From a virus: a DNA stretch of 43,845 nucleotides. Shown piece by piece: positions 13,912 to 40,217 of the stretch. The stretch spans positions 1-43,845 of the IMG/VR virus record IMGVR_UViG_3300028284_000016; one strand, given 5' to 3'. The notes beneath the pieces were generated by a model. It was not told where the DNA came from. It worked only from the letters and a program-made list of their open reading frames with translations, and made no database searches. The translations under genes were made by a program, and so were the position numbers. Position 1 is the first letter of the stretch, and each line of letters opens with the position of its first letter.

Positions 13912-14389
13912 AATACTCTATTCCTGTTGCTTCTCTTCTTGTTAAGTGACAATCTACTATAATAGATACAGAAGAACCAAAGTTCTGTCCATAATCAGTT
14001 AAGTTGTAGCTCTTATCTCTACCTAAGAATAGTTGGTTCTCTCCTACTTTATCTACTTGGTAGTAATCTTCTGACCATACCACTATATCCCCTACCTCAG
14101 GTACGGTCTGTATATCTTCTAAGTCTCTTCTAAGGAAAGCAAAGGATACATCTCTACCTAAATCAGGTCCAAACTCATCTACCGTTACTACTTGATCTCC
14201 TCTTGTAATTAAACAGTTGAGTTTAGTAGGTTCTAAGTAGGTCTTATCTAAAGCTTCACCGTAGATGTTAGCTTCTGTATCATCTAATGATATTTTATAG
14301 TATAGAATCTCTTGTTCAACGACATCGCTTAATAGTTCCCTATTAATTCCCACTAGTAAATCAAAATCTCTATTACTTCCGAATATCAT
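13901..14389 (-). CDS. Neck / head-completion protein, T4 gp14-like
   Basis: A 162-residue protein with the pattern of gp14-type neck proteins: a central GRDVSFAFLRRDLED followed by VPEVGDIVVWSEDYYQVDKVGENQLFLGRDKSYNL, then a C-terminal strand SVSIIVDCHLTRRE. It is shorter than T4 gp14 (256). The start overlaps the 99-residue gene by four bases (ATGA) and its own 3' end overlaps the gp15-like gene by 11 bases, placing it inside a tight neck operon. An alternative is a generic head-tail connector of the same fold. The call rests on motif spacing and gene order. Confidence 0.58.
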   Translation of the reverse strand: MIFGSNRDFDLLVGINRELLSDVVEQEILYYKISLDDTEANIYGEALDKTYLEPTKLNCLITRGDQVVTVDEFGPDLGRDVSFAFLRRDLEDIQTVPEVGDIVVWSEDYYQVDKVGENQLFLGRDKSYNLTDYGQNFGSSVSIIVDCHLTRREATGIEYYGR

Positions 14390-14685
14390 TTCTCTTCTAT
14401 TGTCTGTTCCCCTACCTCTACTGAGATTATATTAGTGTATTTCTTAGTAGCATTGTCTCTAAACGATGTGTATGCTTCTATTCCTTCTTTTTGACTAATT
14501 AACTTAACTTTATATGTAGCTATATTAGCTTCTTGGTCTTGATTAGCTACAGTTACTGTTGTAACGCCCGGTAATGCTCTTAAAGCATCGTCATAGCCTT
14601 CAGCTCCCTCTTCACCGTAGGTTACTTTAACCATTGCTTCAAAGGTCCTGTAATTTATCTCTAATATTAAATCTATTAACTTCAT
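14386..14685 (-). CDS. Small conserved neck-cassette protein with capsid-targeting-like N-terminus
   Basis: A 99-residue protein. The start MKLIDLILEIN has the M-K-L-x-x-[IL]-I-L-E pattern found on several unrelated proteins in this window and ends in the (I/L)-x-E prohead-protease consensus at E9. The rest alternates strand and helix (LPGVTTVTVANQDQEA, ATYKVKLISQKEG, IISVEVGE) and looks like a small ferredoxin-like domain. It sits between the gp13- and gp14-like genes, overlapping the former by one base and the latter by four. T4 has no gene at this place. It may be a head-vertex or neck accessory protein; the function is not known. Confidence 0.6.
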   Translation of the reverse strand: MKLIDLILEINYRTFEAMVKVTYGEEGAEGYDDALRALPGVTTVTVANQDQEANIATYKVKLISQKEGIEAYTSFRDNATKKYTNIISVEVGEQTIEEK

Positions 14686-16687: not shown

Positions 16688-18250
16688 TTATATCTGAGCT
16701 AAATCAGATACAAAAATCTTACCGTAGAATTCTGGACGAATCATTTTCTTAGCGTAACGAGTCATCAAACCTTTTCTTGGTGTGAAAGATTCTGGATCGT
16801 ATACTAATGGAGTCATCAATAATGGAACGTAAGGAGCATATACAGCACCTGTTTCCAAGAATTGACTACCTCTATAACCCATAAGAACGATGTTCTCAGT
16901 CATATAAGGATTCTTGTACACTTTAAAGCGGTTAGCTAAGCTACCTACTTTTTGTACACCCATTGAGAATTCCATTTGATCACCATCTGTAGCTGCAGCA
17001 TATCCTGGGATAGACTCTAGTACAGTAGCAACTGTTGGAGATACTACTAAGAAATTAGCACCACCTCTTAAAGTTTTTTGGTGAATCTTGTTAGATACTT
17101 TTTGGATTTTAGTTCCTAAAGTTTGGAACCATTGACCTTGAGTATTGTAGAAATCAGAAGTACCAGTTGACCAGTTAGAACCAGTCCATACTTTATTGTT
17201 TTCTGCAGACCAGTGATCAGTAGTTCTAGCACCTAAGATCAACATATCTAAGATCTCTAAATCGATCTCCATAGAGATGTATTCAGATAACAAAGATGTT
17301 AACTCAGCCTCAGCATCAATACTGTGGTAAGCGTTAAGATCTTGTGCAAATTCTGGAGTCCATTGTGCTTTTAACTTTCTAGTCTTAGCTACAATTGCCT
17401 CAGAACTTAACTTAACGTCGATTTCTGGAATACCTAAGTTTTCTACTGCTACTGCTGATGCAGCTTCGTAGTCTCCTCTTGTATTGTCAGTTGGTTGCTT
17501 GTGGAATACTAACGGTAGTGATGCAGCAGCAGTTGCTCCTGTAGCACATAAAAATTCGATTGCATTTCCATTTACTTTAGTGTACTCGTTAAAAGTAGCA
17601 ACACCAGTTAATCTAAAAGCTCTTACACCTTCTACATCAGCAGAAGCTGGTAGTGGTACAGAGATAATGTCATAATCAGCTGGTGATAGACCAACTTCGT
17701 GGTTTATTGATCCAGAAGTTGCTCCTGTAGTAATAGTTGTAGCAGATGCTACTGATGCGTCATTGATTGAGTAACCAAATTGACCTGCACCATACATACC
17801 ACCGCTTACTGCGTTGTCTACAGCAATTTTGCTGTTAGCAGTTGATACGTTTCCGTATAGGTTATCTCCTTCTGCTCTTCCGTTTTTAGTATCTCCATAT
17901 TTGAAGTCTAAATAGAATACTAGACCTGAAGGTAAGTTCATTGGTTGAACTGATACGAAGTCTTGTGCTACGATAGAAGAAAATACTTTTCTTACTAATG
18001 GTAGAGCAACACCTGCCCAAGTTTCACCAGCGCCAGCGCTAAAGCCAGAACCTCCTGATTGATTTACGTTAGCTTCAGCTACGATTTGTTTTGCTTGGTT
18101 TTCCAAGATCATTGCCATGCTAGTTGCATACCTCTTATCTTCGATCCCCTCTAACAAACCAGAAGCTTGCCATTTATCTGCTAATTTAGCAGAGTCAGCC
18201 ATCATACTTTTGTAAGTATTCGAGCTTTCTAATAGGTTGTTAATTTCCAT
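16688..18250 (-). CDS. Major capsid protein, T4 gp23-like
   Basis: A 520-residue protein close in length to T4 gp23 (521). The N-terminal ~60 residues are a helical propeptide with protease-type sites (NLLE at 5-8, LLE at 32-34, ILE at 48-50, VAE at 57-59 followed by ANVNQSGG). After it come the gp23 core motifs, including LPLVRKVFSSIVAQDFVSVQPMNLPSGLVFYLDFKYG. The C-terminus (residues ~460-520) matches the end of gp23-type HK97-fold shells. In T4 the prohead protease removes ~65 residues, and a similar cut near E59 is expected. The gene follows the scaffold by 26 bases with no promoter element between them and ends at a strong terminator. Confidence 0.93.
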   Translation of the reverse strand: MEINNLLESSNTYKSMMADSAKLADKWQASGLLEGIEDKRYATSMAMILENQAKQIVAEANVNQSGGSGFSAGAGETWAGVALPLVRKVFSSIVAQDFVSVQPMNLPSGLVFYLDFKYGDTKNGRAEGDNLYGNVSTANSKIAVDNAVSGGMYGAGQFGYSINDASVASATTITTGATSGSINHEVGLSPADYDIISVPLPASADVEGVRAFRLTGVATFNEYTKVNGNAIEFLCATGATAAASLPLVFHKQPTDNTRGDYEAASAVAVENLGIPEIDVKLSSEAIVAKTRKLKAQWTPEFAQDLNAYHSIDAEAELTSLLSEYISMEIDLEILDMLILGARTTDHWSAENNKVWTGSNWSTGTSDFYNTQGQWFQTLGTKIQKVSNKIHQKTLRGGANFLVVSPTVATVLESIPGYAAATDGDQMEFSMGVQKVGSLANRFKVYKNPYMTENIVLMGYRGSQFLETGAVYAPYVPLLMTPLVYDPESFTPRKGLMTRYAKKMIRPEFYGKIFVSDLAQI

Positions 18251-18276: not shown

Positions 18277-19383
18277 TTATTTTATAATACCTGCAAGTTT
18301 TTGCATTCTACGAACTGTATCAGATACTTCTGAGATTACCTCTCTTGAAGCAGTTGTTCCAGTAGCTTTAGATGCAAGCCCTTTAATTTTTGATTCTGCA
18401 ACGTTTCCTTTTTTCGTAGTAACTACATTTTCAGAAACTGTTTCGAATACTAACTTAACTTCTTTTACTGTTTCAGCTTTATCAAAAGCAGCAATGATGT
18501 TAACTTTTTGAGATTCAGCCAAATTGCTTGACTTGAAAATTTTGTTTACATAAAGAAGTTTAGAATTTAATAAGTTCACTTCTTGTAGGTCTACTCTCAA
18601 TGTCTCAATTGTTGTTAGAGCATCTTTTAAGTCTTCCTTAAGAGTTCTGTTAATATTCTTTTCTTTAGTATCACTTTCAGCAGGAACTTCTACAGCAGTA
18701 TCTTCAGTTACAGACTCGTCTTTTTCGTCTTCGTCTTTGTCTTCTGATACAACTCCTTCTAGTTCTCTTAAAAGTTCGTCAAGATCGATTTCATCGTCTT
18801 CAGCTTCTGGTTCAGCTCCTAATTCTGGTTCCATTCCTGGTTCTTCAATTGGTGCTTCGTCTCCCATGCCTTCGATATCACCGCCATCCATATCCATTCC
18901 AAGTTCCTCTTCACCGTCTCCGGCTCCAACTTCTTGAGCGATTATGTCTCTGATCATATCTTTAAACTGGTCAACAGAAAGTTTAGATAAATCTTCGTCT
19001 CCGTCGATTTCTTCTTCACCTTCTACTTCTGCTTCTGGTGCAATGTCTTCTATCTCTTCTTCACCGGCTTCAGCAGGAGCTTCGTCTTCAGATTCTTCTG
19101 AATCATCCTCTACTTCTTCTTCTTCGGTTGTGAATTCTTCCTCTATTGCTTCTTCTTTTTTATCTTCGTCGTAGTTTCCTTCTTCTATCTCTTCTTCGAC
19201 TTCGTTTACTACAGCTTCATCTTTGGAATCTTTATCTTCCATTTCTTGAAGTTTTGCAGCTAACATGTCTTTAAGATGAGGAGTTAAAGTCTCTTCTAAA
19301 GCTTCTTTAGCGTTTGCAATAGCGGCTTCACGGACAGATTTTGCTTCAGCAATTGCTTGCTTGAACATTTCTTTGTTTGCCAT
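18277..19383 (-). CDS. Prohead core scaffolding protein, T4 gp22-like
   Basis: A 368-residue protein. The N-terminus MANKEMFKQAIAEAKSVREA contains a prohead-protease-type site (IAE|A at 11-13) of the same wording as the T4 internal-protein leader. Residues ~55-240 are extremely acidic and low in complexity. The C-terminal region has the gp22 signature LRVDLQEVNLLNSKLLYVNKIFKSSNLAESQKVNIIAAFDKA, with an LAE|S site. Such scaffolds form the prohead core and are degraded by the protease at maturation. The position directly before the capsid gene and after the protease gene matches T4 order. Two CTATTTAT-type elements precede it. Confidence 0.85.
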   Translation of the reverse strand: MANKEMFKQAIAEAKSVREAAIANAKEALEETLTPHLKDMLAAKLQEMEDKDSKDEAVVNEVEEEIEEGNYDEDKKEEAIEEEFTTEEEEVEDDSEESEDEAPAEAGEEEIEDIAPEAEVEGEEEIDGDEDLSKLSVDQFKDMIRDIIAQEVGAGDGEEELGMDMDGGDIEGMGDEAPIEEPGMEPELGAEPEAEDDEIDLDELLRELEGVVSEDKDEDEKDESVTEDTAVEVPAESDTKEKNINRTLKEDLKDALTTIETLRVDLQEVNLLNSKLLYVNKIFKSSNLAESQKVNIIAAFDKAETVKEVKLVFETVSENVVTTKKGNVAESKIKGLASKATGTTASREVISEVSDTVRRMQKLAGIIK

Positions 19384-19567: not shown

Positions 19568-20113
19568 TTACCCTATTACTCCAATGTCTGATAAGACATC
19601 TTTAATTAAGGTGTGTACTTCTTTACCTTTAACGAGAGATTTAACTGATGCAAATGCTGTAGCTCCCCAAGCAGACTTTCTAATTGAAGTAATCACTTCA
19701 CCTCCGTATTGTCCTGCTAAGAAGAAAATAAATAAAGCGTAAAGTCCTTTTGTTACTGTTGGAATATACTTCTTAGTCGGCCCTACCATTACTAAGGTAA
19801 GTACCCTTTTAATTGGGGACATAAAAGCTGTTTCGTTCTTATGAGTCCAATCGTATATTGCTTTTGCTTTATCACCAACTTTTTCCCATCCTTGTTTTTT
19901 AGCAATTTTGGTAGCCATACTAGAAAGTAAATTAGCGACTGTATTAGATAAAAGTATATAACTTAGTACCCCTAAAACACCTGCAACTTCATTTGCCTGT
20001 CCATCTTGTTTTATATCTTTACCCTCAAGTTCTTTTTGGATAGCTTGAGCAAGTACTGAGAAGTTTTCCTGTTCGTGGAGGGTATCTTCAAGTATTATAT
20101 TTGCTAATTTCAT
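19568..20113 (-). CDS. Putative prohead-packaged membrane protein with capsid-targeting-like leader
   Basis: A 181-residue protein of unknown family. The start MKLANIILEDT has the shared M-K-L-x-x-[IL]-I-L-E leader, with a candidate (I/L)-x-E cut at E9. Two hydrophobic segments suggest membrane helices: VLGVLSYILLSNTVANLL (~45-62) and LYALFIFFLAGQYGG (~123-137). The C-terminus is amphipathic (VHTLIKDVLSDIGVIG). The gene sits between the protease and scaffold genes, where T4 has none. A packaged hydrophobic protein could insert into the host membrane on injection; that is inference. Confidence 0.6.
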   Translation of the reverse strand: MKLANIILEDTLHEQENFSVLAQAIQKELEGKDIKQDGQANEVAGVLGVLSYILLSNTVANLLSSMATKIAKKQGWEKVGDKAKAIYDWTHKNETAFMSPIKRVLTLVMVGPTKKYIPTVTKGLYALFIFFLAGQYGGEVITSIRKSAWGATAFASVKSLVKGKEVHTLIKDVLSDIGVIG

Positions 20114-20129: not shown

Positions 20130-20708
20130 TTATGCTCTTAGAATATCGTTAATGATAGCGTCTAATGTACTGTAGTTTATAGCTTGTGTTTTACCCTCTT
20201 GTAATTGTATTGGGTTCATAAAAGCTCCGTGGGTGGAAGGATTAGATACAAAATCCCAGCATACTAATTCAAAGTCTTGCTGAACTTCTAATGTTCCTTC
20301 GTTTGTTTGGTTTACTGAGCCTGTACCTCTAGATGAGATTCCAATTGTATGACCAGCTTTAATAATTTCTTTAACTATATTACCTGATGGTGTATTAAGT
20401 AGTTCAACACGTCCCATAAGGTCGTTTCCTTTCCACCATAAGTCTTTTACTATATGAGAAGCATTCTTTAAAGAGACTACAGGAGATTCAGGGTGATCAA
20501 GTTCTCCGAAAGCATTTCCGTTTTTAACAAACTCTGTTATGTATTTCTTTGCCTCTCTTTCTAAAATAGCCTTAGAATAAACTCTACCGTTTTGATTCTC
20601 TGCTACTGCTCTCTGCATTACACCTTCTACTTCGAATACTCCAGGTCTCCCTTTAGCTTCTCTAAGTATAGATTTAAACGGTGTAACATTTAATAGTAAT
20701 TGTTGCAT
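20130..20708 (-). CDS. Prohead core protease, T4 gp21-like (S80 family)
   Basis: A 192-residue protein with the gp21 landmarks GVFEVEGVMQRAVAENQNGRVYSKAIL, the catalytic-His region GELDHPES (H72) and the catalytic-Ser region IGISSRGTGSV (S125/S126), then DFELVCWDFVSNPSTHGAFM. Gp21-type serine proteases reside in the prohead core and cut scaffold, capsid and internal proteins after (I/L)-x-E. The protein's own N-terminus contains SILRE|A (E17), a plausible self-processing site. It lies 3 bases downstream of the 703-residue gene and 17 upstream of the membrane-protein gene, in T4-like order between portal and scaffold. Confidence 0.93.
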   Translation of the reverse strand: MQQLLLNVTPFKSILREAKGRPGVFEVEGVMQRAVAENQNGRVYSKAILEREAKKYITEFVKNGNAFGELDHPESPVVSLKNASHIVKDLWWKGNDLMGRVELLNTPSGNIVKEIIKAGHTIGISSRGTGSVNQTNEGTLEVQQDFELVCWDFVSNPSTHGAFMNPIQLQEGKTQAINYSTLDAIINDILRA

Positions 20709-27404: not shown

Positions 27405-28481
27405 TTAGAATACGTACCACCATCTAGGTAGTCCATCTTTCATTTGTACTTTAATTTTCGTTCCAGCTAAATCTGATAGTGCATCTGCAGCTATTTTTAT
27501 GAATGAACCTGAACTATCGTCAAGAAATAGTACCTCTTCGAATTTATCTAATATAACGTATAAATCAATTACTTTCTTTCCAAATACTACTTCTAGCTTA
27601 TCTGCATCGATAGTGTTTCCACTTTTAAATGATGATAGATTAAAATCTGTAAAGTCAATACCTCTATATAGTCTCTTAATTATAGAGTCCATGATATCAA
27701 TTGCTGAATCTACTTTACTGCTGTCTACTGTAGCAACTGCTTCTAGTATTTTATTTAACCTATGGAATGGTCTATTACCTTTAGTCTGAACTTCGAGTTG
27801 TTGACCTACTAAGCTGCTAATTTCTTTAATAGCGTCTGCAATCATTACGCCTGCTGTTGCTTTGCTAAATTCAGCTTTTTGGCCCATTGGTATTGCTCCG
27901 CCGTTTTTAACTTCAATTCCTTTCTTTCCTACACCGACATCTCCATGAATTGGATCTCCATGTACATCTCCTACAAGAGTACAGAGTAAGACTTCTCCTT
28001 TACCAGTTGCAATATTACCCATTGATGGTTTAGTATTAAGTAGGTAAGAAATTGTCTCAGCAGATATAAATTTTTCGAATGCTGTCTTAAGGTTACCTGA
28101 GGCTCCTAAGCCGTCGTAGGTAATAGGTGTTCCTGTTATATAAGCGTGGAATTTCTGAATGTCTCCATTCTCTACAAATTCATTATATATTTGTTTACTT
28201 ATAGAAGTTACTGCTTTACCTTTTTTGTTTAGGTAATCCATTACTTCCTGTTTATAAGCTACTCCGGAAATACCGCTAAGTATGTTCTTGAGTTGTTGAG
28301 GTGTAAACTCTCCTATCTTAATAGCATTAATAACTTCATCTTTAGTAATTTGACCATCTGCTGCGCCTAATTCCTTTAAAAGAGATTCTAATATTGCTTT
28401 GTCTTCAGGATTGTTCATATCTGGAGTACCGTTTTTAGTTCTCCATGCCCACTCTGTATATAGTTTATCTGTAACGTTCAT
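27405..28481 (-). CDS. Putative PD-(D/E)XK-type nuclease-like protein upstream of terminase
   Basis: A 358-residue protein. The region GKGEVLLCTLVGDVHGDPIHGDVGV-GKKGIEVKNGGAIPMG (~160-200) has the spacing of a PD-(D/E)XK core: G-K-G-E, then D, then E-V-K-N. A similar G-K-G-E...I-E-[IV]-K-x-x-G-G pattern occurs in proteins of other marine T4-like phages. The N-terminal ~100 residues are helical with an EF-hand-like DGQITKDEV; the C-terminal half is helical. It sits immediately before the large terminase, where a small terminase could be expected, but I see no small-terminase features. Nuclease activity is an inference from the motif alone. Confidence 0.5.
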   Translation of the reverse strand: MNVTDKLYTEWAWRTKNGTPDMNNPEDKAILESLLKELGAADGQITKDEVINAIKIGEFTPQQLKNILSGISGVAYKQEVMDYLNKKGKAVTSISKQIYNEFVENGDIQKFHAYITGTPITYDGLGASGNLKTAFEKFISAETISYLLNTKPSMGNIATGKGEVLLCTLVGDVHGDPIHGDVGVGKKGIEVKNGGAIPMGQKAEFSKATAGVMIADAIKEISSLVGQQLEVQTKGNRPFHRLNKILEAVATVDSSKVDSAIDIMDSIIKRLYRGIDFTDFNLSSFKSGNTIDADKLEVVFGKKVIDLYVILDKFEEVLFLDDSSGSFIKIAADALSDLAGTKIKVQMKDGLPRWWYVF

Positions 28482-29566
28482 TATGCTTCTGGTTCTTCAG
28501 TTTCGTCTTCGAAATCAATTTCTTCTCCTCCTAAATCAGCTGGTGCTTCATCTCCTCCTCCGCCGTCTTCTGCTCCAAAGTCCTCTTCTCCACCTTCAGC
28601 TCCTCCATCTCCTCCAGGGAAGTCTCCTCCTCCACCTCCTCCGCCGCCGGAATCAGTATCAGGTGCTTCACCTTCTCCAGCTCCACTCATCGGTGCTTCT
28701 TTATAAAGGATAGATAGCTTATCAAGTGCTTGTTGGTACTCTGATATTACAGATAAAGAGTATCGTTTACCCATAATTTGAGCTTCGAAAGTTTTACCTG
28801 TCCACTTTAAGATATAGTCTTGTCCGTTTTTAAGGTTAACTCTAAATGAAGATGGTCTAGGTGAGATCCAATCAATAGAATCTACAAATTCTTTAAAATC
28901 TTCTGTCTGTAATTTTATTAAAGCTGCTTTAACAGTAGGAAATTTAGCTAATATAGTATCAGTAGAATCTTCTAAAACTGTCTCTGGTGCTGCATCTGTA
29001 TCTGGTTCTTCTTCTGGTGCTGGTGCTTCATCTTCTTCTGCTTCTTCTAATTGTTGCCAAAGAGACTCTTCTTTTAATAGTGATGTATGAGAGTAAATCA
29101 GTTCTACTGACTCGTTGATATCTTCAGATATTCTTCTCATTTTCATGAGTTCGTATTGATCTGGTCTCTCTATTCTTAAATACCTTTGTAGTTTTCTAAA
29201 GTTAGTCTTAATTAATTCAAAAAGCTCTCTAGCATTTTTATCTTGTCTAATATCTGGAGAGTTCATTAAGTTTCTAATGTCAGATATTAATGAAGTAAAG
29301 TTAGAGTATAACCCTTCAAATGAGGGTAATTTTACTACTGTATGACCTATATTACCTGTAGTTTTATCTACCGAAGTTGTCTTAAAGTATGTTTGCATAT
29401 CAGAAGATACGAAATCCTTTTCAGGCCATTTAGAAACTCCGTATCTTTTTTCGATACTATCTCTAAAGGCTTTTGGAAGTTCTTCTAAGCCATATGTGCC
29501 TTTCTCTTTCTCTTCTTCTCTTAGTTCAGAAAATGCTTCTAGTATAAGTTTCTCTAATTTATGCAT
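28481..29566 (-). CDS. Putative internal head protein with capsid-targeting-like leader (361 aa)
   Basis: The start MHKLEKLILEAFSE carries the shared leader with a candidate cut at ILE|A (E10). Further protease-type sites are INE|S (~153) and LEE|A (~174), which flank an acidic Pro/Ala/Glu linker. A folded middle domain (~205-300, FRVNLKNGQDYILKWTGKTFEAQIMGKRYSL) follows. The C-terminus is an acidic tail of polyglycine and Glu/Asp. No enzymatic motif is seen. It lies 3 bases after the 1126-residue gene and overlaps the next start by one base. It is best read as a processed, packaged core protein. Confidence 0.58.
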   Translation of the reverse strand: MHKLEKLILEAFSELREEEKEKGTYGLEELPKAFRDSIEKRYGVSKWPEKDFVSSDMQTYFKTTSVDKTTGNIGHTVVKLPSFEGLYSNFTSLISDIRNLMNSPDIRQDKNARELFELIKTNFRKLQRYLRIERPDQYELMKMRRISEDINESVELIYSHTSLLKEESLWQQLEEAEEDEAPAPEEEPDTDAAPETVLEDSTDTILAKFPTVKAALIKLQTEDFKEFVDSIDWISPRPSSFRVNLKNGQDYILKWTGKTFEAQIMGKRYSLSVISEYQQALDKLSILYKEAPMSGAGEGEAPDTDSGGGGGGGGDFPGGDGGAEGGEEDFGAEDGGGGDEAPADLGGEEIDFEDETEEPEA

Positions 29567-33426: not shown

Positions 33427-34005
33427 CTAAATTTCAGTACGTAAATTTTTAAGGTACCCTTTCATTTCTTTCATGACCTTCTCTTTATATGCTTGTGGCA
33501 TATCATTCCAATCTTCTACATCTCCTGCTTCTGTTACATATGAACTAGTGCCTTCCATAGCTTCCAATACATAGGCTTCCATGTCATTAGCAAATGCTTT
33601 TAAGTTACCTTGTAGCATTCTCTTTTCATATTGATCGTACAGCCCTACCTTCTTTAAGGTTGCTTCCATAAGTACGGTACATGGGTCAAAACAAAAACCA
33701 TGTATCTTATACATCTTTTTTGCTAAGTGGTGTTTCATTTCACCTCCACAGTTAGGACAAGATAGGGGTACCCTAACAGATTTTTTAGCTTCGTCTAGCT
33801 TGGTAATATTCTGTTTAAGTCCGTCTTTGATAGTCCACTGTTTACCATTCTCTTCCCAAATGTCTCCTTCTGAGTATCTTATCTGTTGTTTTTGGTATCC
33901 GGTTTGTTGCTTTGTAGAAGAAGTAAAGTCCTTATTGACTATGTTTCTTACTCTTTGTACATCGCTTTGCTTAAACTCTTTCTTTAGTAAACTTTCGTTA
34001 CTCAT
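33427..34005 (-). CDS. Zn-ribbon protein of unknown function (192 aa)
   Basis: The centre contains LSCPNCGGEMKHHLAKKMYKIHGFCFDPC, a C-x2-C...C-x3-C metal site with extra His residues. Gln/Lys-rich polar segments precede it and a helical, acidic C-terminus follows (NDMEAYVLEAMEG, VMKEMKGYLKNL). Proteins with this C-P-x-C-x-G...K-K-M-x-x-x-H pattern are found in marine T4-like genomes next to structural genes. No catalytic residues are evident, so it may bind nucleic acid or another phage protein. It overlaps the HAD gene by 8 bases. Confidence 0.58.
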   Translation of the reverse strand: MSNESLLKKEFKQSDVQRVRNIVNKDFTSSTKQQTGYQKQQIRYSEGDIWEENGKQWTIKDGLKQNITKLDEAKKSVRVPLSCPNCGGEMKHHLAKKMYKIHGFCFDPCTVLMEATLKKVGLYDQYEKRMLQGNLKAFANDMEAYVLEAMEGTSSYVTEAGDVEDWNDMPQAYKEKVMKEMKGYLKNLRTEI

Positions 34006-34546
34006 AACCTAGCTCTTTTAATTTTTCGATAACATGATTCACATCACCGTTTTTACATCTTATTGCTATTCCTCCTTTTGCAGCCCACTCATCTATATTA
34101 GACGGTTTGTCGTCTATAAGAATAGAATTCTCGTTTGCATACCTTTGCTTTGCTTTTGAATATGCAAAGATGACTTTTGGTTTAGGGTTAACATTATTCT
34201 TAACCCAAAGGTTTTTCCCGAGTCTAGAGTTGTTATGTCTAGAGGGAGAAGTAAGTAAATCAGGTTGATATGGTTTAATAAAATCCCAAAGCTGTTGTCC
34301 AGCTGGCATCCAATCCATTCCTACCCAAAATTTAACTCCTACTGTATTATCTATTAACTCCCAGAATGCTGGTGTTCCTTTTTCTTTTTCGTATACTTGG
34401 GGATTCATCCCCGTATAGTGTTCAAATCTACTTTCAAAATCTGTTAGTACTCCATCCATATCACAATAGATCTTATACGGAGGTACTTCTTTTTTCTCTG
34501 CTAAAGGGTAAGCCTCTAGCAATTCTACTAAACTTTTTTGTTTCAT
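33998..34546 (-). CDS. HAD-superfamily phosphatase / 5'(3')-deoxyribonucleotidase-like
   Basis: A 182-residue protein. HAD motif I is YCDMDGVLTDF (D29, D31), motif II is LLTSPSRH, and the motif III/IV region is ENSILIDDKPSNIDEWAAKGGIAI. The layout matches the small 5'(3')-deoxyribonucleotidase-like HADs that dephosphorylate (deoxy)nucleotides. An N-terminal extension, MKQKSLVELLEAYPLAEKKE, precedes the fold and has an (I/L)-x-E site (LLE|A at 9-11), so the enzyme might be packaged and trimmed like other leader-bearing proteins here. It overlaps the nucleotidyltransferase gene by four bases. Confidence 0.75.
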   Translation of the reverse strand: MKQKSLVELLEAYPLAEKKEVPPYKIYCDMDGVLTDFESRFEHYTGMNPQVYEKEKGTPAFWELIDNTVGVKFWVGMDWMPAGQQLWDFIKPYQPDLLTSPSRHNNSRLGKNLWVKNNVNPKPKVIFAYSKAKQRYANENSILIDDKPSNIDEWAAKGGIAIRCKNGDVNHVIEKLKELGYE

Positions 34547-36399
34547 AACCTTTGTTTAATGCCTAACTTTGGAAGGCGTTTATTCCACAATATACGAATT
34601 TTTTTACGGTTCTCCAACTCTACGCCAGCTTTTTCAAAGTAATCTTCTACTACATCAGCGAAAGGAGTCCTAGATTTTTTAGCTTTAAAATACATTCCTT
34701 GTATCATGGCATCAACTTCTTTCGGGAGTTGATAATATTCATCTTTATCCATTACACCCATATCGATCATACCTCTTACTAGAGCATCATCTTCTATATA
34801 CTTACCGGGTTTAACGTTTTCTCCGTCTTGAGTTAAGTGCTCTAACTCATGTCTTACTACATCCTTAAGGTCAAATGATACTTCTTGCCAGTCGGGGTTC
34901 TTTTGTATTTTAAATTTAACGTTTAGCATTGGTTGAATTTCATCTCCGTCATCATCGAAACCAGCGTTTGCTCCTCCGTCTACACTATATGTGTCTTCTG
35001 TAAACTCTACTACTCCTAAGAAGTCAAATTCAAACTGTGAAGAAGGAATATCTACTTCTGGATCTTCTGGGTTACCTACTCGGAATTCAAACTCTCCTCC
35101 TTTGTCTCCTCTATCGTGGATGTCTATAAAAGTTTCTAGTGCTAATCCAGATAACTTATTTGCTAATTTGTCGTATTTACCTTCTGCCATAACCGTTTCA
35201 TTTGTTTCCTCTTTCTTCATTGCTTTTCCTGCAGCTTCTGCATCCTTATGAGCTTTCGAATTACCGTGAGATGGTTTCTCTCCTCTTTTCTTTTTAGCAT
35301 TTATATTGGCCCATAGTCCAGGTTTCTTTGCTTCAGAGGTGTTCTTATAACTGTCTTCCCAGTTTCTAAATGTTATGTTACCAACTAGGTATGCTTCTTT
35401 CTCTAATTCTAATAGAGCGTCGTCAGCTGTTGTGTCTGATGTTTGAATGTTTCCTAATCTATTCTCTATGTTTTGAATATGGTGAACCATTTCATGAGTA
35501 AAAGATCTACATATGTCTTTAGGGTGTCTACCGCTTACATATAGTACTATTTCTTTACTGTTTGGATCGTAATGAGCTGTCTTTCCGAAGAAATCTTTAG
35601 CATTCTCTTCATCATATCTAACTTTAACTTCAGGTAGAGGTTGAATATTCATATCCTGGTCTAACATATACTCTAATATAGATCCAATATACTTAGTATA
35701 TTCAGGTTTACTATTAAGGGCAGATTCTTTCTCTATTTCTGGAGTTGTATCTTCTGCAAAATACTCTGATAGAAATCCATTTATGTTATTACTTATTACT
35801 TCGGCAACTATCTTTTCTTTTAAATTTGATAGAATACCTAATATTTGGTCTTTAGTTAGTTCCTTAGGGAAAAAATCAACAATAGTGTCTAAGTTACCTG
35901 AGAGTATACTCTTTCTAAAGTTTGTTGCTCTAACTCCGGAATCATTAGCTGTTGTTACTGCTAATCCTTTCACATTAGGAGTATTTTTAAATGTAGTTAC
36001 CCTCCTTAGGTCTACAAAATCTTCTTCACCTCTTAAGCCTGTTACTGCTACAAACTCTTCATCAGGGTTTGCTTTAGCCCAATCTTTAGCAGCAAACATA
36101 GGGTTCTTTTGACCGTCTATAATTTCTACATTAGATAGGTGTTGAGCATATATCTCCCATATCTTAGTAGCTTCTTGTTTATCTATTCCGTTTCTTTCTC
36201 CTCCTCCTACAAATATTAGTACTTTATCTATAGATGGTTTACCTTCTGGTCTACCTTTTAATAGAGATGTTGCTTTTTCTTTGAAATCTGTTATATCATA
36301 AACTGTTCCATTGTAGGAACCATCTAATAAAGATTTTACTACATTAAAATGTCCTCTATGAGGTGGTTTATATGCTCCGGGGTATAGTGCTGTTGCCAT
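34543..36399 (-). CDS. Fusion: NMNAT-like nucleotidyltransferase + two HExxH metallopeptidase-like domains
   Basis: A 618-residue protein. Residues 1-~185 form a nucleotidyltransferase of the NMNAT/cytidylyltransferase type: LYPGAYKPPHRGHFNVV with H-x-G-H at 14-17, and an ATP-site TTANDSGVRATNFRKSIL analogous to the S/T-x-x-x-[RK] motif. Around 300 the sequence RSFTHEMVHHIQNIE has HExxH (302-306) with downstream LELEKEAYLVGN as a likely third ligand. A second HExxH occurs in VVRHELEHLTQDG (517-521), followed by LPKEVDAMIQGM. A Lys-rich linker (~355-400) separates the two. The fusion suggests nucleotide/NAD metabolism combined with proteolysis. It overlaps neighbours by 1-4 bases. Confidence 0.72.
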   Translation of the reverse strand: MATALYPGAYKPPHRGHFNVVKSLLDGSYNGTVYDITDFKEKATSLLKGRPEGKPSIDKVLIFVGGGERNGIDKQEATKIWEIYAQHLSNVEIIDGQKNPMFAAKDWAKANPDEEFVAVTGLRGEEDFVDLRRVTTFKNTPNVKGLAVTTANDSGVRATNFRKSILSGNLDTIVDFFPKELTKDQILGILSNLKEKIVAEVISNNINGFLSEYFAEDTTPEIEKESALNSKPEYTKYIGSILEYMLDQDMNIQPLPEVKVRYDEENAKDFFGKTAHYDPNSKEIVLYVSGRHPKDICRSFTHEMVHHIQNIENRLGNIQTSDTTADDALLELEKEAYLVGNITFRNWEDSYKNTSEAKKPGLWANINAKKKRGEKPSHGNSKAHKDAEAAGKAMKKEETNETVMAEGKYDKLANKLSGLALETFIDIHDRGDKGGEFEFRVGNPEDPEVDIPSSQFEFDFLGVVEFTEDTYSVDGGANAGFDDDGDEIQPMLNVKFKIQKNPDWQEVSFDLKDVVRHELEHLTQDGENVKPGKYIEDDALVRGMIDMGVMDKDEYYQLPKEVDAMIQGMYFKAKKSRTPFADVVEDYFEKAGVELENRKKIRILWNKRLPKLGIKQRL

Positions 36400-37331
36400 T
36401 ATGCTAAAAAGGATTGTAAGTCTCTATCTATTTCTTGAGGAGTTGAATGAGCTAACTTTTCTTGAAATTTAGGATCGTATAACATATCTACTATATTATC
36501 CATAACTTCAACATGTTTTCCATCATTCTTCTCTTTTCTATCTCTATACTTCGTTATTGCGTCTTTTAGTTTATCAGCTCCAGGTCCTGCTCCGTTTTTC
36601 TGATAAGCTTTTATAAAGGCATTCTTTATAGCTTTATCCTCAGATCTATTGTTAGTATCCCAATTAATACCTGTTGTAGCTTTTTTAAACTCTTGCTCTT
36701 CTTCATCATTCATTTCAACTGGAGAGAAAAATGTTGAACCTCCTACTCCATGCTTAGTATTATATTTCTGCAAGTAATCTTTTAGTCCTTGAGTTCCGTT
36801 TTTTGCTGCTGTATCAAATCCTTCGACTTCTTTTGCATATTTACCTCCTCTATCACTAACGTGAACGGAAAGATTACCGCTTAGCATTTTATCATACTCT
36901 CCAATCAATTGATAGACATTACGCCAGGTAGAGAATACTGCTGGTCCGGGTATACTTCTATCTGATCTACTAAAGTTAGATATGTAAGAAATCATAGGAT
37001 GAGTATACACCATTACCATATATACTTTATACCCTGCATTTAAGATATCTTTTACCTTAGAAGCATTAGAAGCTGTCGTATCCCAAACGAAACTAGTTTT
37101 TTCTTCGAGGGCTGCTGCTACGTCTTTGTTGGTTTGAGCTGCTGCTGGTCCTAGTTTGTTGTGGTATGGATGATTGGGATCCTCTACGTATTTGTCTGGG
37201 TTGAACTGTTCTAGGCTGTCTAGGGACAATTGGTTTAATAGGTGTGACTTGCCTGACCCTGCTCCCCCTGCCATTACCACTGCTTTCGGGGCGTTGGTAG
37301 ACTCTAGGATTAGTTCTGATAGTTTTATCAT
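36399..37331 (-). CDS. Zeta-toxin-like P-loop kinase with capsid-targeting-like leader
   Basis: A 310-residue protein. The leader MIKLSELILEST fits the shared M-(I)-K-L-x-x-L-I-L-E pattern with a candidate cut at ILE|S (E10). It is followed by the strand APKAVVMAGGAGSGKS, with Walker A at 22-29. Zeta-toxin/PNK-type landmarks are FNPDKYVEDPNHPYHN, FVWDTTASN and the lid region SRSDRSIPGPAVFSTWRNV. Zeta toxins phosphorylate UDP-sugars; related phage kinases act on nucleic acid or nucleotides, so the substrate is open. The C-terminal half is helical and charged. The first 79 codons overlap the 3' end of the lipoprotein gene by 239 bases in another frame. Confidence 0.72.
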   Translation of the reverse strand: MIKLSELILESTNAPKAVVMAGGAGSGKSHLLNQLSLDSLEQFNPDKYVEDPNHPYHNKLGPAAAQTNKDVAAALEEKTSFVWDTTASNASKVKDILNAGYKVYMVMVYTHPMISYISNFSRSDRSIPGPAVFSTWRNVYQLIGEYDKMLSGNLSVHVSDRGGKYAKEVEGFDTAAKNGTQGLKDYLQKYNTKHGVGGSTFFSPVEMNDEEEQEFKKATTGINWDTNNRSEDKAIKNAFIKAYQKNGAGPGADKLKDAITKYRDRKEKNDGKHVEVMDNIVDMLYDPKFQEKLAHSTPQEIDRDLQSFLA

Positions 37332-37938
37332 TGTTGTTAGTATTTACTGTTCTTCTCTTTTTTACCTTTACTTCTTTTGTTGATTGAATCATAGCAGCGT
37401 GTGCTCTACCATTTCTTGTAGTTGTAGTTCCTCTTCTACCGCTATGATAAGCTACGTTAGTACCTCTATATCTATTATAATTAGGACCGTAGTAACCGTT
37501 GCTCCAGTTATTCCAACCGTTAAAACTCCATCCATGATTATTCCAACCATAGTACATATTGTATCCCCATCTATCATACCCAAATGGTGACCATCTATGA
37601 GGAGAACCCCAAGAATTCCAACCTGTATAACCCCAAACCCAATCATTCCACATTTGACTTCTACTGTAGTAGGGGTTATAGTAATAATACCTATTACCTA
37701 GTAACCTATTGTTCCAATCAAATGAACTAGGTTGACTTATAGCATACTGAGCATAATCATATCTAAAGTTAAAATCAGTTCTAAGTAAATTACGTAATTG
37801 AAATTCATTTTTAATTACATTAATGTTTACATCAGAGCCTTCTAGGACGTATTCTGGTTCATGATTAATAGTGCTCAATTGAAATGAAGCACAACCTGTT
37901 AGCACTGTTGATAGTAATACAATAAGTAATTTTTTCAT
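37093..37938 (-). CDS. Phage-encoded lipoprotein, W/Y/N-rich, with overprinted basic tail
   Basis: A 281-residue protein. A type II signal peptide MKKLLIVLLSTVLTGC has a lipobox L-T-G-C (13-16), so C16 should be lipidated. Residues ~60-165 are very rich in Trp, Tyr, Asn and Gly (for example GWNSWGSPHRWSPFGYDRWG), as in some Bacteroidota cell-envelope proteins. From about residue 203 the frame overlaps the kinase gene and becomes a biased R/S/Q/P tail. Phage lipoproteins can block superinfection or alter the envelope, which is a possible role. A CTATTTAT element lies 41 bases upstream of the ATG. Confidence 0.68.
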   Translation of the reverse strand: MKKLLIVLLSTVLTGCASFQLSTINHEPEYVLEGSDVNINVIKNEFQLRNLLRTDFNFRYDYAQYAISQPSSFDWNNRLLGNRYYYYNPYYSRSQMWNDWVWGYTGWNSWGSPHRWSPFGYDRWGYNMYYGWNNHGWSFNGWNNWSNGYYGPNYNRYRGTNVAYHSGRRGTTTTRNGRAHAAMIQSTKEVKVKKRRTVNTNNNDKTIRTNPRVYQRPESSGNGRGSRVRQVTPIKPIVPRQPRTVQPRQIRRGSQSSIPQQTRTSSSSNQQRRSSSPRRKN

Positions 37939-39720: not shown

Positions 39721-40152
39721 TTAATCTAGTGGTCCATACTTACCTGATGCCATATCTGCACCGAAGTCTCTAGAAGATTTAGAGTCTAACTGTATGTATA
39801 CTGGGTCTGTATTATTTTTATTGGGCATATGACTTATCCCGTAAAAAGATCTTAAGTGATACCTGTCTATAGCTTTAGACTCATCACTTTCTATAGCAGA
39901 TTTAAGGATAGAAACTACTTCTGATCTCCAATCGCCGCTAGGTTTTATAGTTTTGTAATCGCTGCTGGTTGCGAAGTTGTTTAAATTAATTGGTATTTTA
40001 ATACTTTCAATAGTATCAGGTACTCTTTTAAGAAGCTCTATAAACTCTTCCATTGAATCTGTTGAACCTAACCAGTCTACAGAGTATGTTTTACCATTAA
40101 TTACAGATGTAGCTGCTTCAAATCCTTCAAAAATAATACTTCTTAATTTCAT
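39721..40152 (-). CDS. Hypothetical protein with capsid-targeting-like leader (143 aa)
   Basis: The start is taken at the ATG at 40152. It gives MKLRSIIFEGFEAATSV, the shared leader with an IFE|G site at E9, and lies 5 bases after the stop of a 19-residue microgene. A longer frame from an ATG at 40173 would overlap that microgene. The rest looks like a small alpha/beta domain (VINGKTYSVDWLGSTDSMEEFIELLKRVPDTIESIKIPINL) with a middle K-P-S-G-D-W-R-S-E segment and an end QLDSKSSRDFGADMASGKYGPLD. No family is recognised. By its leader it is a candidate packaged protein. Confidence 0.55.
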   Translation of the reverse strand: MKLRSIIFEGFEAATSVINGKTYSVDWLGSTDSMEEFIELLKRVPDTIESIKIPINLNNFATSSDYKTIKPSGDWRSEVVSILKSAIESDESKAIDRYHLRSFYGISHMPNKNNTDPVYIQLDSKSSRDFGADMASGKYGPLD

Positions 40153-40157
40153 AATAC

Positions 40158-40217
40158 TTAATCGTTTCCGCATCCACAGTTACCACCGCATCCGCATTCG
40201 TCGTCTTTTATATTCAT
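40158..40217 (-). CDS. 19-residue Cys-rich microprotein
   Basis: ATG at 40217, TAA at 40158; the translation is MNIKDDECGCGGNCGCGND. The start overlaps the stop of the 84-residue gene as ATGA, and the stop lies 5 bases before the next ATG, so the short frame fills exactly the space between two genes. The C-x-C-x3-C-x-C spacing could bind a metal. No family is known to me; the evidence is architecture and coupling only. Confidence 0.45.
   Translation of the reverse strand: MNIKDDECGCGGNCGCGND

What the first reader, a model, noticed from the sequence alone, without database searches (positions are those of the whole stretch)
36399..37331. Zeta-toxin-like kinase that appears to be a packaged, injectable effector
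A P-loop kinase with zeta-toxin/PNK landmarks starts with the leader MIKLSELILE directly before the first strand of its fold, so cleavage after E10 would leave an intact enzyme. No antitoxin-like partner is visible beside it. By analogy with T4 Alt, an enzyme packaged and injected with the DNA, this could act on host nucleotides, RNA or cell-wall precursors at the start of infection.
Basis: partly seen in the sequence, partly recalled or inferred. Interest (0 to 1): 0.85.

Follow-up and report, generated by a model that had tools for sequence, protein, structure and literature searches.

The report
Phage kinase with capsid-packaging tag
A family of marine T4-like phages attaches a short, apparently cleavable tag to a kinase and to several unrelated enzymes, which suggests that the phage packs them into its head and injects them with its DNA to act on the host before any phage gene is expressed.

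Summary
The ORF is real (36399-37331, minus, 310 aa): a zeta-toxin/PNK-type P-loop kinase with an intact active site (K28, D46, D84, R122, R125 invariant in 57 orthologues). The leader is real too: L4 and E10 are invariant in all 57, residues 11-14 vary, and the model leaves it outside the fold (pLDDT 47). The same leader starts 253 of 1676 distinct genes in related contigs (shuffled expectation 2.2), on at least a dozen unrelated families, among them superoxide dismutase. It matches the T4 capsid-targeting sequence at the positions shown in T4 to drive targeting (4, 7) and cleavage (8, 10). A gp21-like protease is present and conserved [LIV]xE sites stud the capsid protein's propeptide. Distant homologues in T4-like phages carry T4-type leaders (MKRFKDFVLEE). 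No antitoxin is adjacent. I conclude: a capsid-targeted cargo kinase, probably packaged, trimmed after E10 and injected. Virion presence and substrate are untested; PNK is the nearest fold, zeta toxin the nearest sequence family. Unexpectedly, an upstream lipoprotein gene runs about 235 nt into the kinase gene in another frame in 73 of 76 loci, kept open by selection.

The parts
36399..37331 (-). Zeta-toxin/PNK-type P-loop kinase, 310 aa (stop included)
   Evidence: Pfam Zeta_toxin 2.4e-10; AF2 model pLDDT 85; 129 viral relatives
37302..37331 (-). Leader MIKLSELILE, predicted capsid-targeting sequence; predicted cut after E10 (between 37302 and 37301)
   Evidence: L4/E10 invariant in 57 orthologues; shared by 253/1676 genes
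37245..37268 (-). Walker A (GGAGSGKS, residues 22-29)
   Evidence: G27 and K28 invariant
37194..37202 (-). N44-P45-D46, catalytic-type Asp
   Evidence: N44 and D46 invariant in 57
34543..36399 (-). Downstream HIGH-type nucleotidyltransferase with two HExxH motifs; no leader
   Evidence: abuts the kinase (TAATG) in most loci; alignment A2
33998..34546 (-). HAD phosphatase (5'(3')-deoxyribonucleotidase-like) with leader ending LLE|A
   Evidence: phrog_2643 6e-23; leader E in 95% of 45 orthologues
20130..20708 (-). gp21-like prohead protease, predicted processing enzyme
   Evidence: phrog_207 4.6e-53
16688..18250 (-). Major capsid protein with four [LIV]xE sites (8, 34, 50, 59) conserved in 50 of 50
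   Evidence: phrog_138
18277..19383 (-). Protein in scaffold (gp22) position, N-terminus MANKEMFKQAIAE|A
   Evidence: site conserved 48/48; assignment by position
19568..20113 (-). Leader-bearing protein (MKLANIILE) between protease and scaffold
   Evidence: E9 conserved in 33/33
28481..29566 (-). Leader-bearing protein (MHKLEKLILE)
14386..14685 (-). Leader-bearing protein (MKLIDLILE)
39721..40173 (-). Leader-bearing protein (MKLRSIIFE, start probably at the second Met, 40152)
37093..37938 (-). Lipoprotein-like ORF overlapping the kinase by 239 bp in another frame

Best explanation
The gene encodes a cargo enzyme of a T4-like phage of the Immutovirus-related (flavobacterial) type. Its ten-residue leader works as a capsid-targeting sequence: it brings the kinase into the prohead core, the gp21-like prohead protease cuts after E10 (I-L-E|S), and the free kinase stays in the head with the DNA and is ejected into the next host. 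There it phosphorylates a hydroxyl on a nucleotide-type substrate from the first moments of infection. My order of likelihood for the substrate: RNA/DNA 5'-OH or tRNA, then a free nucleotide or NAD-like compound, then UDP-sugar cell-wall precursors. Shown here: gene, fold class, intact active site, leader conservation, leader sharing, protease gene, head-type cut sites. Inferred: packaging, cleavage, injection. Guessed with weak support: substrate.
For: Leader L4/E10 invariant in 57 orthologues while the next four residues drift; in L064-L067 an inserted Ala gives IILAE, so the [LI]xE end is kept. In T4, targeting maps to CTS residues 4 and 7 and processing to 8 and 10 (PMC9026906); the kinase leader is hydrophobic at 4 and 7 in 57/57, I8 in 55/57, E10 in 57/57. 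T4 leaders read from the genome: IPII/IPIII MKTYQEFIAE, gp24 MAKINELLRE, Alt MELITE. Same leader on many unrelated proteins, 253 genes against 2.2 expected, including Fe/Mn SOD in 19 contigs. Families are nearly all-or-none for an N-terminal [LIVMF]xE: kinase 58/58, scaffold-position protein 49/49, HAD 93%; primase, portal, terminase, protease 0. Prohead protease present and [LIV]xE sites fully conserved in the MCP propeptide region. Distant kinase homologues carry leaders of their own: MKRFKDFVLEE and MKKFSEFIKLEE in Straboviridae, MKTFAELQE in Melnitz, MIPFILKE in HTVC008M. The Atu_ph07 homologue (gp53) lies in gene cluster 31-76, where 29 products were found in virions by MS. Fold: PNK Z 13.1, tRNA(Sec) kinase 11.6, AvrRxo1 10.6, zeta 10.0. 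Kinase, HIGH-type nucleotidyltransferase and HAD phosphatase lie in the same order in this clade and in HTVC008M.
Against: No virion proteome of this clade is available, so neither presence nor cleavage is demonstrated. The abutting nucleotidyltransferase lacks the leader, so the operon is not wholly cargo. Immuto, the nearest cultured relative, lacks both this kinase and this leader version. Whether Atu_ph07 gp53 itself was among the MS hits could not be read, and the kinase there is internal to a larger protein. No RNA ligase (PF09414) in 14 related records weakens an RNA-repair role. The P-loop kinase fold resemblance does not fix a substrate.
Confidence: 0.62

Rival explanations
1. Split polynucleotide kinase-phosphatase for RNA repair: kinase plus the tagged HAD phosphatase restore RNA or tRNA ends cut by host anticodon-nuclease defences, either injected or made after infection.
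For: PNK is the best structural match; HAD phosphatase two genes downstream with a leader of its own in 95% of orthologues; weak match of the HAD protein to phrog_415 polynucleotide kinase.
Against: No RNA ligase PF09414 in 14 records (PF09511 search uninformative); HAD is closer to nucleotidases (phrog_2643); the Arg of T4 Pnkp three residues after the Asp is not present.
Confidence: 0.22
2. True zeta-type toxin: the injected kinase phosphorylates UDP-N-acetylglucosamine and weakens the cell wall, as proposed for zeta-like domains in phage polyvalent proteins (PMC5512222).
For: Pfam Zeta_toxin above cut-off in 57/57; only PDB profile hit is PezT; published prediction of packaged zeta-like kinases.
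Against: E-G-T motif is D-T-T; fold scores higher with PNK; a phage must make the kinase in its own host, with no antitoxin beside it.
Confidence: 0.13
3. Leader-tagged but structural: the kinase goes into the prohead core and helps assembly or DNA packaging, and is not injected as an effector.
For: The same [LI]xE N-termini occur on head-core proteins (19568-20113, scaffold-position protein).
Against: Absent from immuto, whose head genes are about 76% identical; tag also sits on SOD and GNAT/NTase proteins; active site invariant.
Confidence: 0.12
4. Not packaged: the leader is a docking helix for some other partner, and the kinase works in the cytoplasm during replication; it lies just downstream of the primase and exonuclease genes.
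For: Gene position next to replication genes; packaging not shown directly.
Against: Primase (0/53) lacks the leader; leader matches the T4 CTS in register and ends at a protease site; distant homologues carry T4-type leaders.
Confidence: 0.15

Closest known systems
T4 internal head proteins IPI-III and gp24 (capsid-targeting sequence / gp21 propeptide)
   Same: Leader of about 10 residues with hydrophobic positions 4/7/8 and a terminal [LI]xE; gp21-like protease in the genome; leader shared among otherwise unrelated proteins
   Different: MKLxxLILE consensus instead of MKTYQEFIAE; cargo is a kinase; virion presence not shown
T4 Alt (injected ADP-ribosyltransferase)
   Same: An enzyme with a short N-terminal propeptide ending [LI]xE (MELITE)
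   Different: Unrelated enzyme fold; Alt also loses a C-terminal propeptide (PMC5694885)
Zeta toxin / PezT (PF06414)
   Same: Pfam family match above cut-off; Walker A Lys and catalytic-type Asp conserved
   Different: No epsilon/PezA-type antitoxin gene, D-T-T in place of E-G-T, helical C-terminal region without a PDB match, phage leader
Bacterial/T4 polynucleotide kinase and tRNA(Sec) kinase
   Same: Best structural matches of the kinase core
   Different: About 15% identity; no fused phosphatase or ligase; substrate unknown
AvrRxo1 (zeta-like effector kinase)
   Same: Zeta-like kinase fold, 183-187 residues aligned at Z 10.0-10.6
   Different: A plant-pathogen effector delivered by another route; no sequence match found
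Phage polyvalent proteins (Iyer et al. 2017, PMC5512222)
   Same: Predicted injected repertoire includes zeta-like kinases, truncated protein kinases, GNAT and Pol-beta NTase domains, comparable to the tagged set here
   Different: There they are domains of one large polypeptide; here mostly single-domain proteins, each with its own cleavable leader
phrog_2071 (ATPase) and phrog_5268 phage kinases
   Same: Related P-loop kinases; several members have T4-type leaders
   Different: Annotated only as ATPase or unknown function

Membership tests
T4-type capsid-targeted, gp21-processed head cargo | N-terminal ~10-residue propeptide with hydrophobic positions 4, 7, 8 and Glu 10 ([LI]xE) | tested here: met
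   57/57 at 4, 7 and 10, I in 55/57 at 8; T4 mapping from PMC9026906
T4-type capsid-targeted, gp21-processed head cargo | Prohead protease of the gp21 type in the same genome | tested here: met
   phrog_207 4.6e-53
T4-type capsid-targeted, gp21-processed head cargo | Leader shared by otherwise unrelated proteins of the phage | tested here: met
   253/1676 genes against 2.2 expected, 19 clusters
T4-type capsid-targeted, gp21-processed head cargo | Protein present in virions, trimmed at the leader | not testable with these tools
   No proteome of this clade; supplement of PMC6102473 not readable here
T4-type capsid-targeted, gp21-processed head cargo | Ejected into the host | not testable with these tools
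   needs an infection experiment
Zeta toxin (PF06414) | Family profile above curated cut-off | tested here: met
   40.6 bits vs 22.3; 57/57 orthologues match
Zeta toxin (PF06414) | Walker A Lys and catalytic Asp | tested here: met
   K28, D46 invariant
Zeta toxin (PF06414) | Adjacent epsilon/PezA-type antitoxin | tested here: not met
   Neighbours are a lipoprotein or exonuclease and an NTase or tagged protein, directly abutting
Zeta toxin (PF06414) | UNAG-binding motif (E-G-T in zeta/PezT) | tested here: inconclusive
   D84-T85-T86 lies at that place in the family pattern; the printed profile alignment is loose there
Zeta toxin (PF06414) | UDP-N-acetylglucosamine kinase activity | not testable with these tools
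   needs an enzyme assay
Polynucleotide kinase | PNK kinase fold | tested here: met
   Z 13.1, 156 aligned, 3.3 A; but related P-loop kinases score 10-12
Polynucleotide kinase | Arg three residues after the catalytic Asp as in T4 Pnkp (recalled from memory) | tested here: not met
   V/I at position 49 in 57/57
Polynucleotide kinase | 5'-OH kinase activity | not testable with these tools
   needs an enzyme assay
Polyvalent protein | Several effector domains in one polypeptide | tested here: not met
   Single kinase domain plus a helical region

The most novel reading that the evidence does not exclude
This clade of T4-like phages runs a general cargo system: one cleavable 9-10-residue tag delivers a cocktail of mostly single-domain enzymes (this kinase, a HAD phosphatase, superoxide dismutase, a GNAT/Pol-beta protein, a protein-kinase-like N-lobe and others) into the host at entry. 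The kinase gene is in addition dual-coding, its P-loop region also specifying the tail of a lipoprotein.
Probability: 0.5. Interest if true: 0.82.

Novelty: new variant of a known kind. Interest (0 to 1): 0.62.

Why it matters
In T4 only Alt and three internal proteins are known as leader-targeted, injected cargo. A readable tag lets one list the putative injected proteome of uncultured phages straight from sequence, and here the list includes a kinase, a phosphatase and a superoxide dismutase, enzymes that could act on host defence or metabolism before phage transcription starts. The prediction is cheap to test by virion proteomics and would turn hypothetical genes of a widespread marine phage group into candidate first-minute effectors.

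Tried and rejected
Chance leader: rejected. Leader conservation as a by-product of the overlapping lipoprotein frame: unlikely, since the leader persists in loci without the overlap (L020, L028, L057, L078: early stops in that frame) and on families with no overlap. Mis-called start: no other in-frame ATG upstream of the leader in the window, and the next Met (20) would remove the first strand. Sequence search against PDB with the single protein: nothing. C-terminal 149 residues predicted alone (pLDDT 84) and searched: no Foldseek match below E 1, best Z 4.2; no built-in antitoxin or RNA-binding domain was recognised, which does not exclude one. RNA ligase search: PF09414 none; PF09511 uninformative because no control rang. 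PADLOC: only weak P-loop matches. Profile searches of the neighbouring NTase and HAD against PDB: nothing convincing. Virion proteomics of cultured relatives: the Baltic Flavobacterium phage paper mentions neither mass spectrometry nor immuto; for Atu_ph07 the MS table is in a supplement that could not be read. An ADP-ribosyltransferase-looking stretch in front of the Atu_ph07 kinase was seen by eye only; Pfam does not call it, so I make no claim. Synonymous diversity alone was a weak test of the overlap (0.84 vs 0.88); stop counts and alt-frame identity were decisive. The family clustering is single-linkage, and its largest cluster (320) is a mixture.

Full report
Observation. The ORF lies exactly where stated (36399-37331, minus strand, 310 aa) and its stop overlaps the ATG of the next gene. 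Pfam places it in Zeta_toxin (E 2.4e-10, above the gathering score, residues 11-126). The window is a 43.8-kb virus record with T4-like head genes: terminase, portal, gp21-like protease, a protein in scaffold position and the major capsid protein. The nearest cultured relative is Flavobacterium phage immuto (terminase 78%, protease 76%), so a flavobacterial host is likely but unproven.

Conservation. A scan of viral contigs gave 129 relatives, 80 kept at 58-73% identity. In 57 distinct orthologues K28, D46, D84-T85-T86, R122, R125, W136 and R137 are invariant, so an active kinase is expected. In the leader, L4 and E10 are invariant and K3, I8, L9 nearly so, while residues 11-14 vary freely. 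In L064-L067 one residue is inserted and the leader becomes IILAE, still ending [LI]xE. The AlphaFold2 model (pLDDT 85) starts its first strand at residue 16 and gives the leader low confidence (pLDDT 47). Removal after E10 should therefore leave the fold intact.

The leader is a shared tag. Among 1676 distinct main-strand genes in the kinase and protease loci, 253 begin with the motif; shuffling residues 2-15 gives 2.2 on average and never more than 6; internal Met gives 7 of 8236. It occurs on 19 clusters, many unrelated. In ten long records the strict DNA pattern hits 29 times against 2 for the reversed pattern, always on one strand per record. By a looser definition (N-terminal [LIVMF]xE ending at 9-13) most families are close to all-or-none: kinase 58/58, scaffold-position protein 49/49, HAD phosphatase 93%, against 0 for primase, portal, terminase and protease. 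Tagged proteins include Fe/Mn superoxide dismutase (Pfam 1.6e-36 and 2.9e-25; 19 contigs) and a GNAT plus Pol-beta NTase protein.

Why a capsid-targeting sequence. In T4 the first ten residues of IPIII suffice for packaging; residues 4 and 7 matter for targeting, 8 and 10 for processing (PMC9026906). The kinase leader has hydrophobic residues at 4 and 7, I at 8 and E at 10, in register. T4 leaders read here are MKTYQEFIAE (IPII, IPIII), MAKINELLRE (gp24) and MELITE (Alt). The window's MCP has four [LIV]xE sites in its first 59 residues conserved in 50 of 50 orthologues. A leader-bearing gene sits between protease and scaffold (19568-20113). Independent support comes from distant homologues of the kinase: in Straboviridae they begin MKRFKDFVLEE, MKKFSEFIKLEE, MKMKFSEFVQLEE, MNFKEFCQLDE; in Melnitz MKTFAELQE; in Pelagibacter phage HTVC008M MIPFILKE. 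The Atu_ph07 homologue is gp53 (gp2 = AUZ94814, gp4-5 = AUZ94816-7, so AUZ94865 = gp53), inside cluster CDS 31-76, of which 29 products were found in virions by MS (PMC6102473). Whether gp53 is one of them could not be read.

What the kinase does. The fold is closest to C. thermocellum PNK (Z 13.1, 156 residues, 3.3 A), then tRNA(Sec) kinase (11.6), AvrRxo1 (10.6) and zeta (10.0); many P-loop kinases score near these, so the ranking is a hint. The profile's only PDB sequence hit is PezT (E 0.018). Features of real zeta toxins are mixed: Lys and Asp present, antitoxin absent, D-T-T where zeta has E-G-T. The C-terminal helical region has no PDB match. The gene is followed by a HIGH-type nucleotidyltransferase and a tagged HAD phosphatase, and the three occur in that order in HTVC008M, which suggests nucleotide-type chemistry. 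RNA ligase (PF09414) was not found in 14 related records. I therefore keep RNA/tRNA ends, small nucleotides or NAD-like compounds, and UDP-sugars as open substrates, in that order.

Novelty. Packaging of zeta-like kinase domains has been predicted before, for polyvalent proteins (PMC5512222), and T4 internal proteins are classic. New here is a stand-alone zeta/PNK-type kinase with a T4-style cleavable tag as one member of a larger tagged set in an uncultured phage clade.

Unplanned finding. In 73 of 76 loci with a recognisable lipoprotein gene upstream, that gene continues 199-238 nt into the kinase gene in another frame. With the kinase protein held fixed, none of 22,800 codon shuffles keeps that frame open to 225 nt, against 48 of 57 real genes. 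The region has 0.08 stops in that frame against 8.4 expected, and alt-frame identity 0.45 against 0.30; three control regions of the gene behave as expected. This is strong evidence for real dual coding of about 78 codons.

Noticed in passing
window 37093-37331 (overlap of 37093-37938 with the kinase); L001-L079: A lipoprotein-like gene runs 199-238 nt into the kinase gene in another frame in 73 of 76 loci; the frame is kept free of stops (0.08 vs 8.4 expected) and its protein sequence is more conserved than expected: long dual-coding overlap across the P-loop.
   Followed up: yes
L034:5938-6558; L175-L193: Fe/Mn superoxide dismutase with the same leader directly before its domain in viral contigs (19 found; leader present wherever the N-terminus was read): apparent packaged SOD in a bacteriophage.
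   Followed up: partly
L185 and L187, upstream of position 2501: SOD is fused in frame behind another leader-bearing protein with an internal MSDILLE|A between them: looks like a two-cargo polyprotein.
   Followed up: no
L002, L010, L020, L032 (about 143 aa); immuto L165:3366-3806: Tagged small proteins that look like the N-lobe of protein kinases (GxGDYGSAYLL..K), reminiscent of truncated kinases predicted in injected polyvalent proteins of Bacteroidetes phages (PMC5512222).
   Followed up: no
L030:14339-15589: Tagged protein with GNAT and Pol-beta nucleotidyltransferase domains (leader MKLTQLILE).
   Followed up: partly
immuto L165: record 103806-104354, 117631-118632, 118632-118931; L141: The related phage immuto uses different recurrent N-termini on unrelated proteins (M..FDL.KFL.ENKLT.NS.LL.E and MKKSQLR..IKE..), possibly alternative targeting leaders.
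   Followed up: no
window 34543-36399: 618-aa protein combining a HIGH-type nucleotidyltransferase with two HExxH motifs and a conserved MAEG.Y segment that could be an internal protease site; matches no Pfam family at E 0.1.
   Followed up: partly
L018, L019, L037, L053, L065, L067 directly after the kinase stop: An extra leader-bearing 160-194-aa protein (MIKLANILLES.., MIKLSKILLEK..) is inserted between kinase and nucleotidyltransferase in some genomes; no convincing Pfam match.
   Followed up: partly
L165:6221-7129 (immuto gp089): In immuto the kinase slot between exonuclease and nucleotidyltransferase is taken by an unrelated protein that looks by eye like a Pol-beta-type nucleotidyltransferase (no Pfam match).
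   Followed up: no
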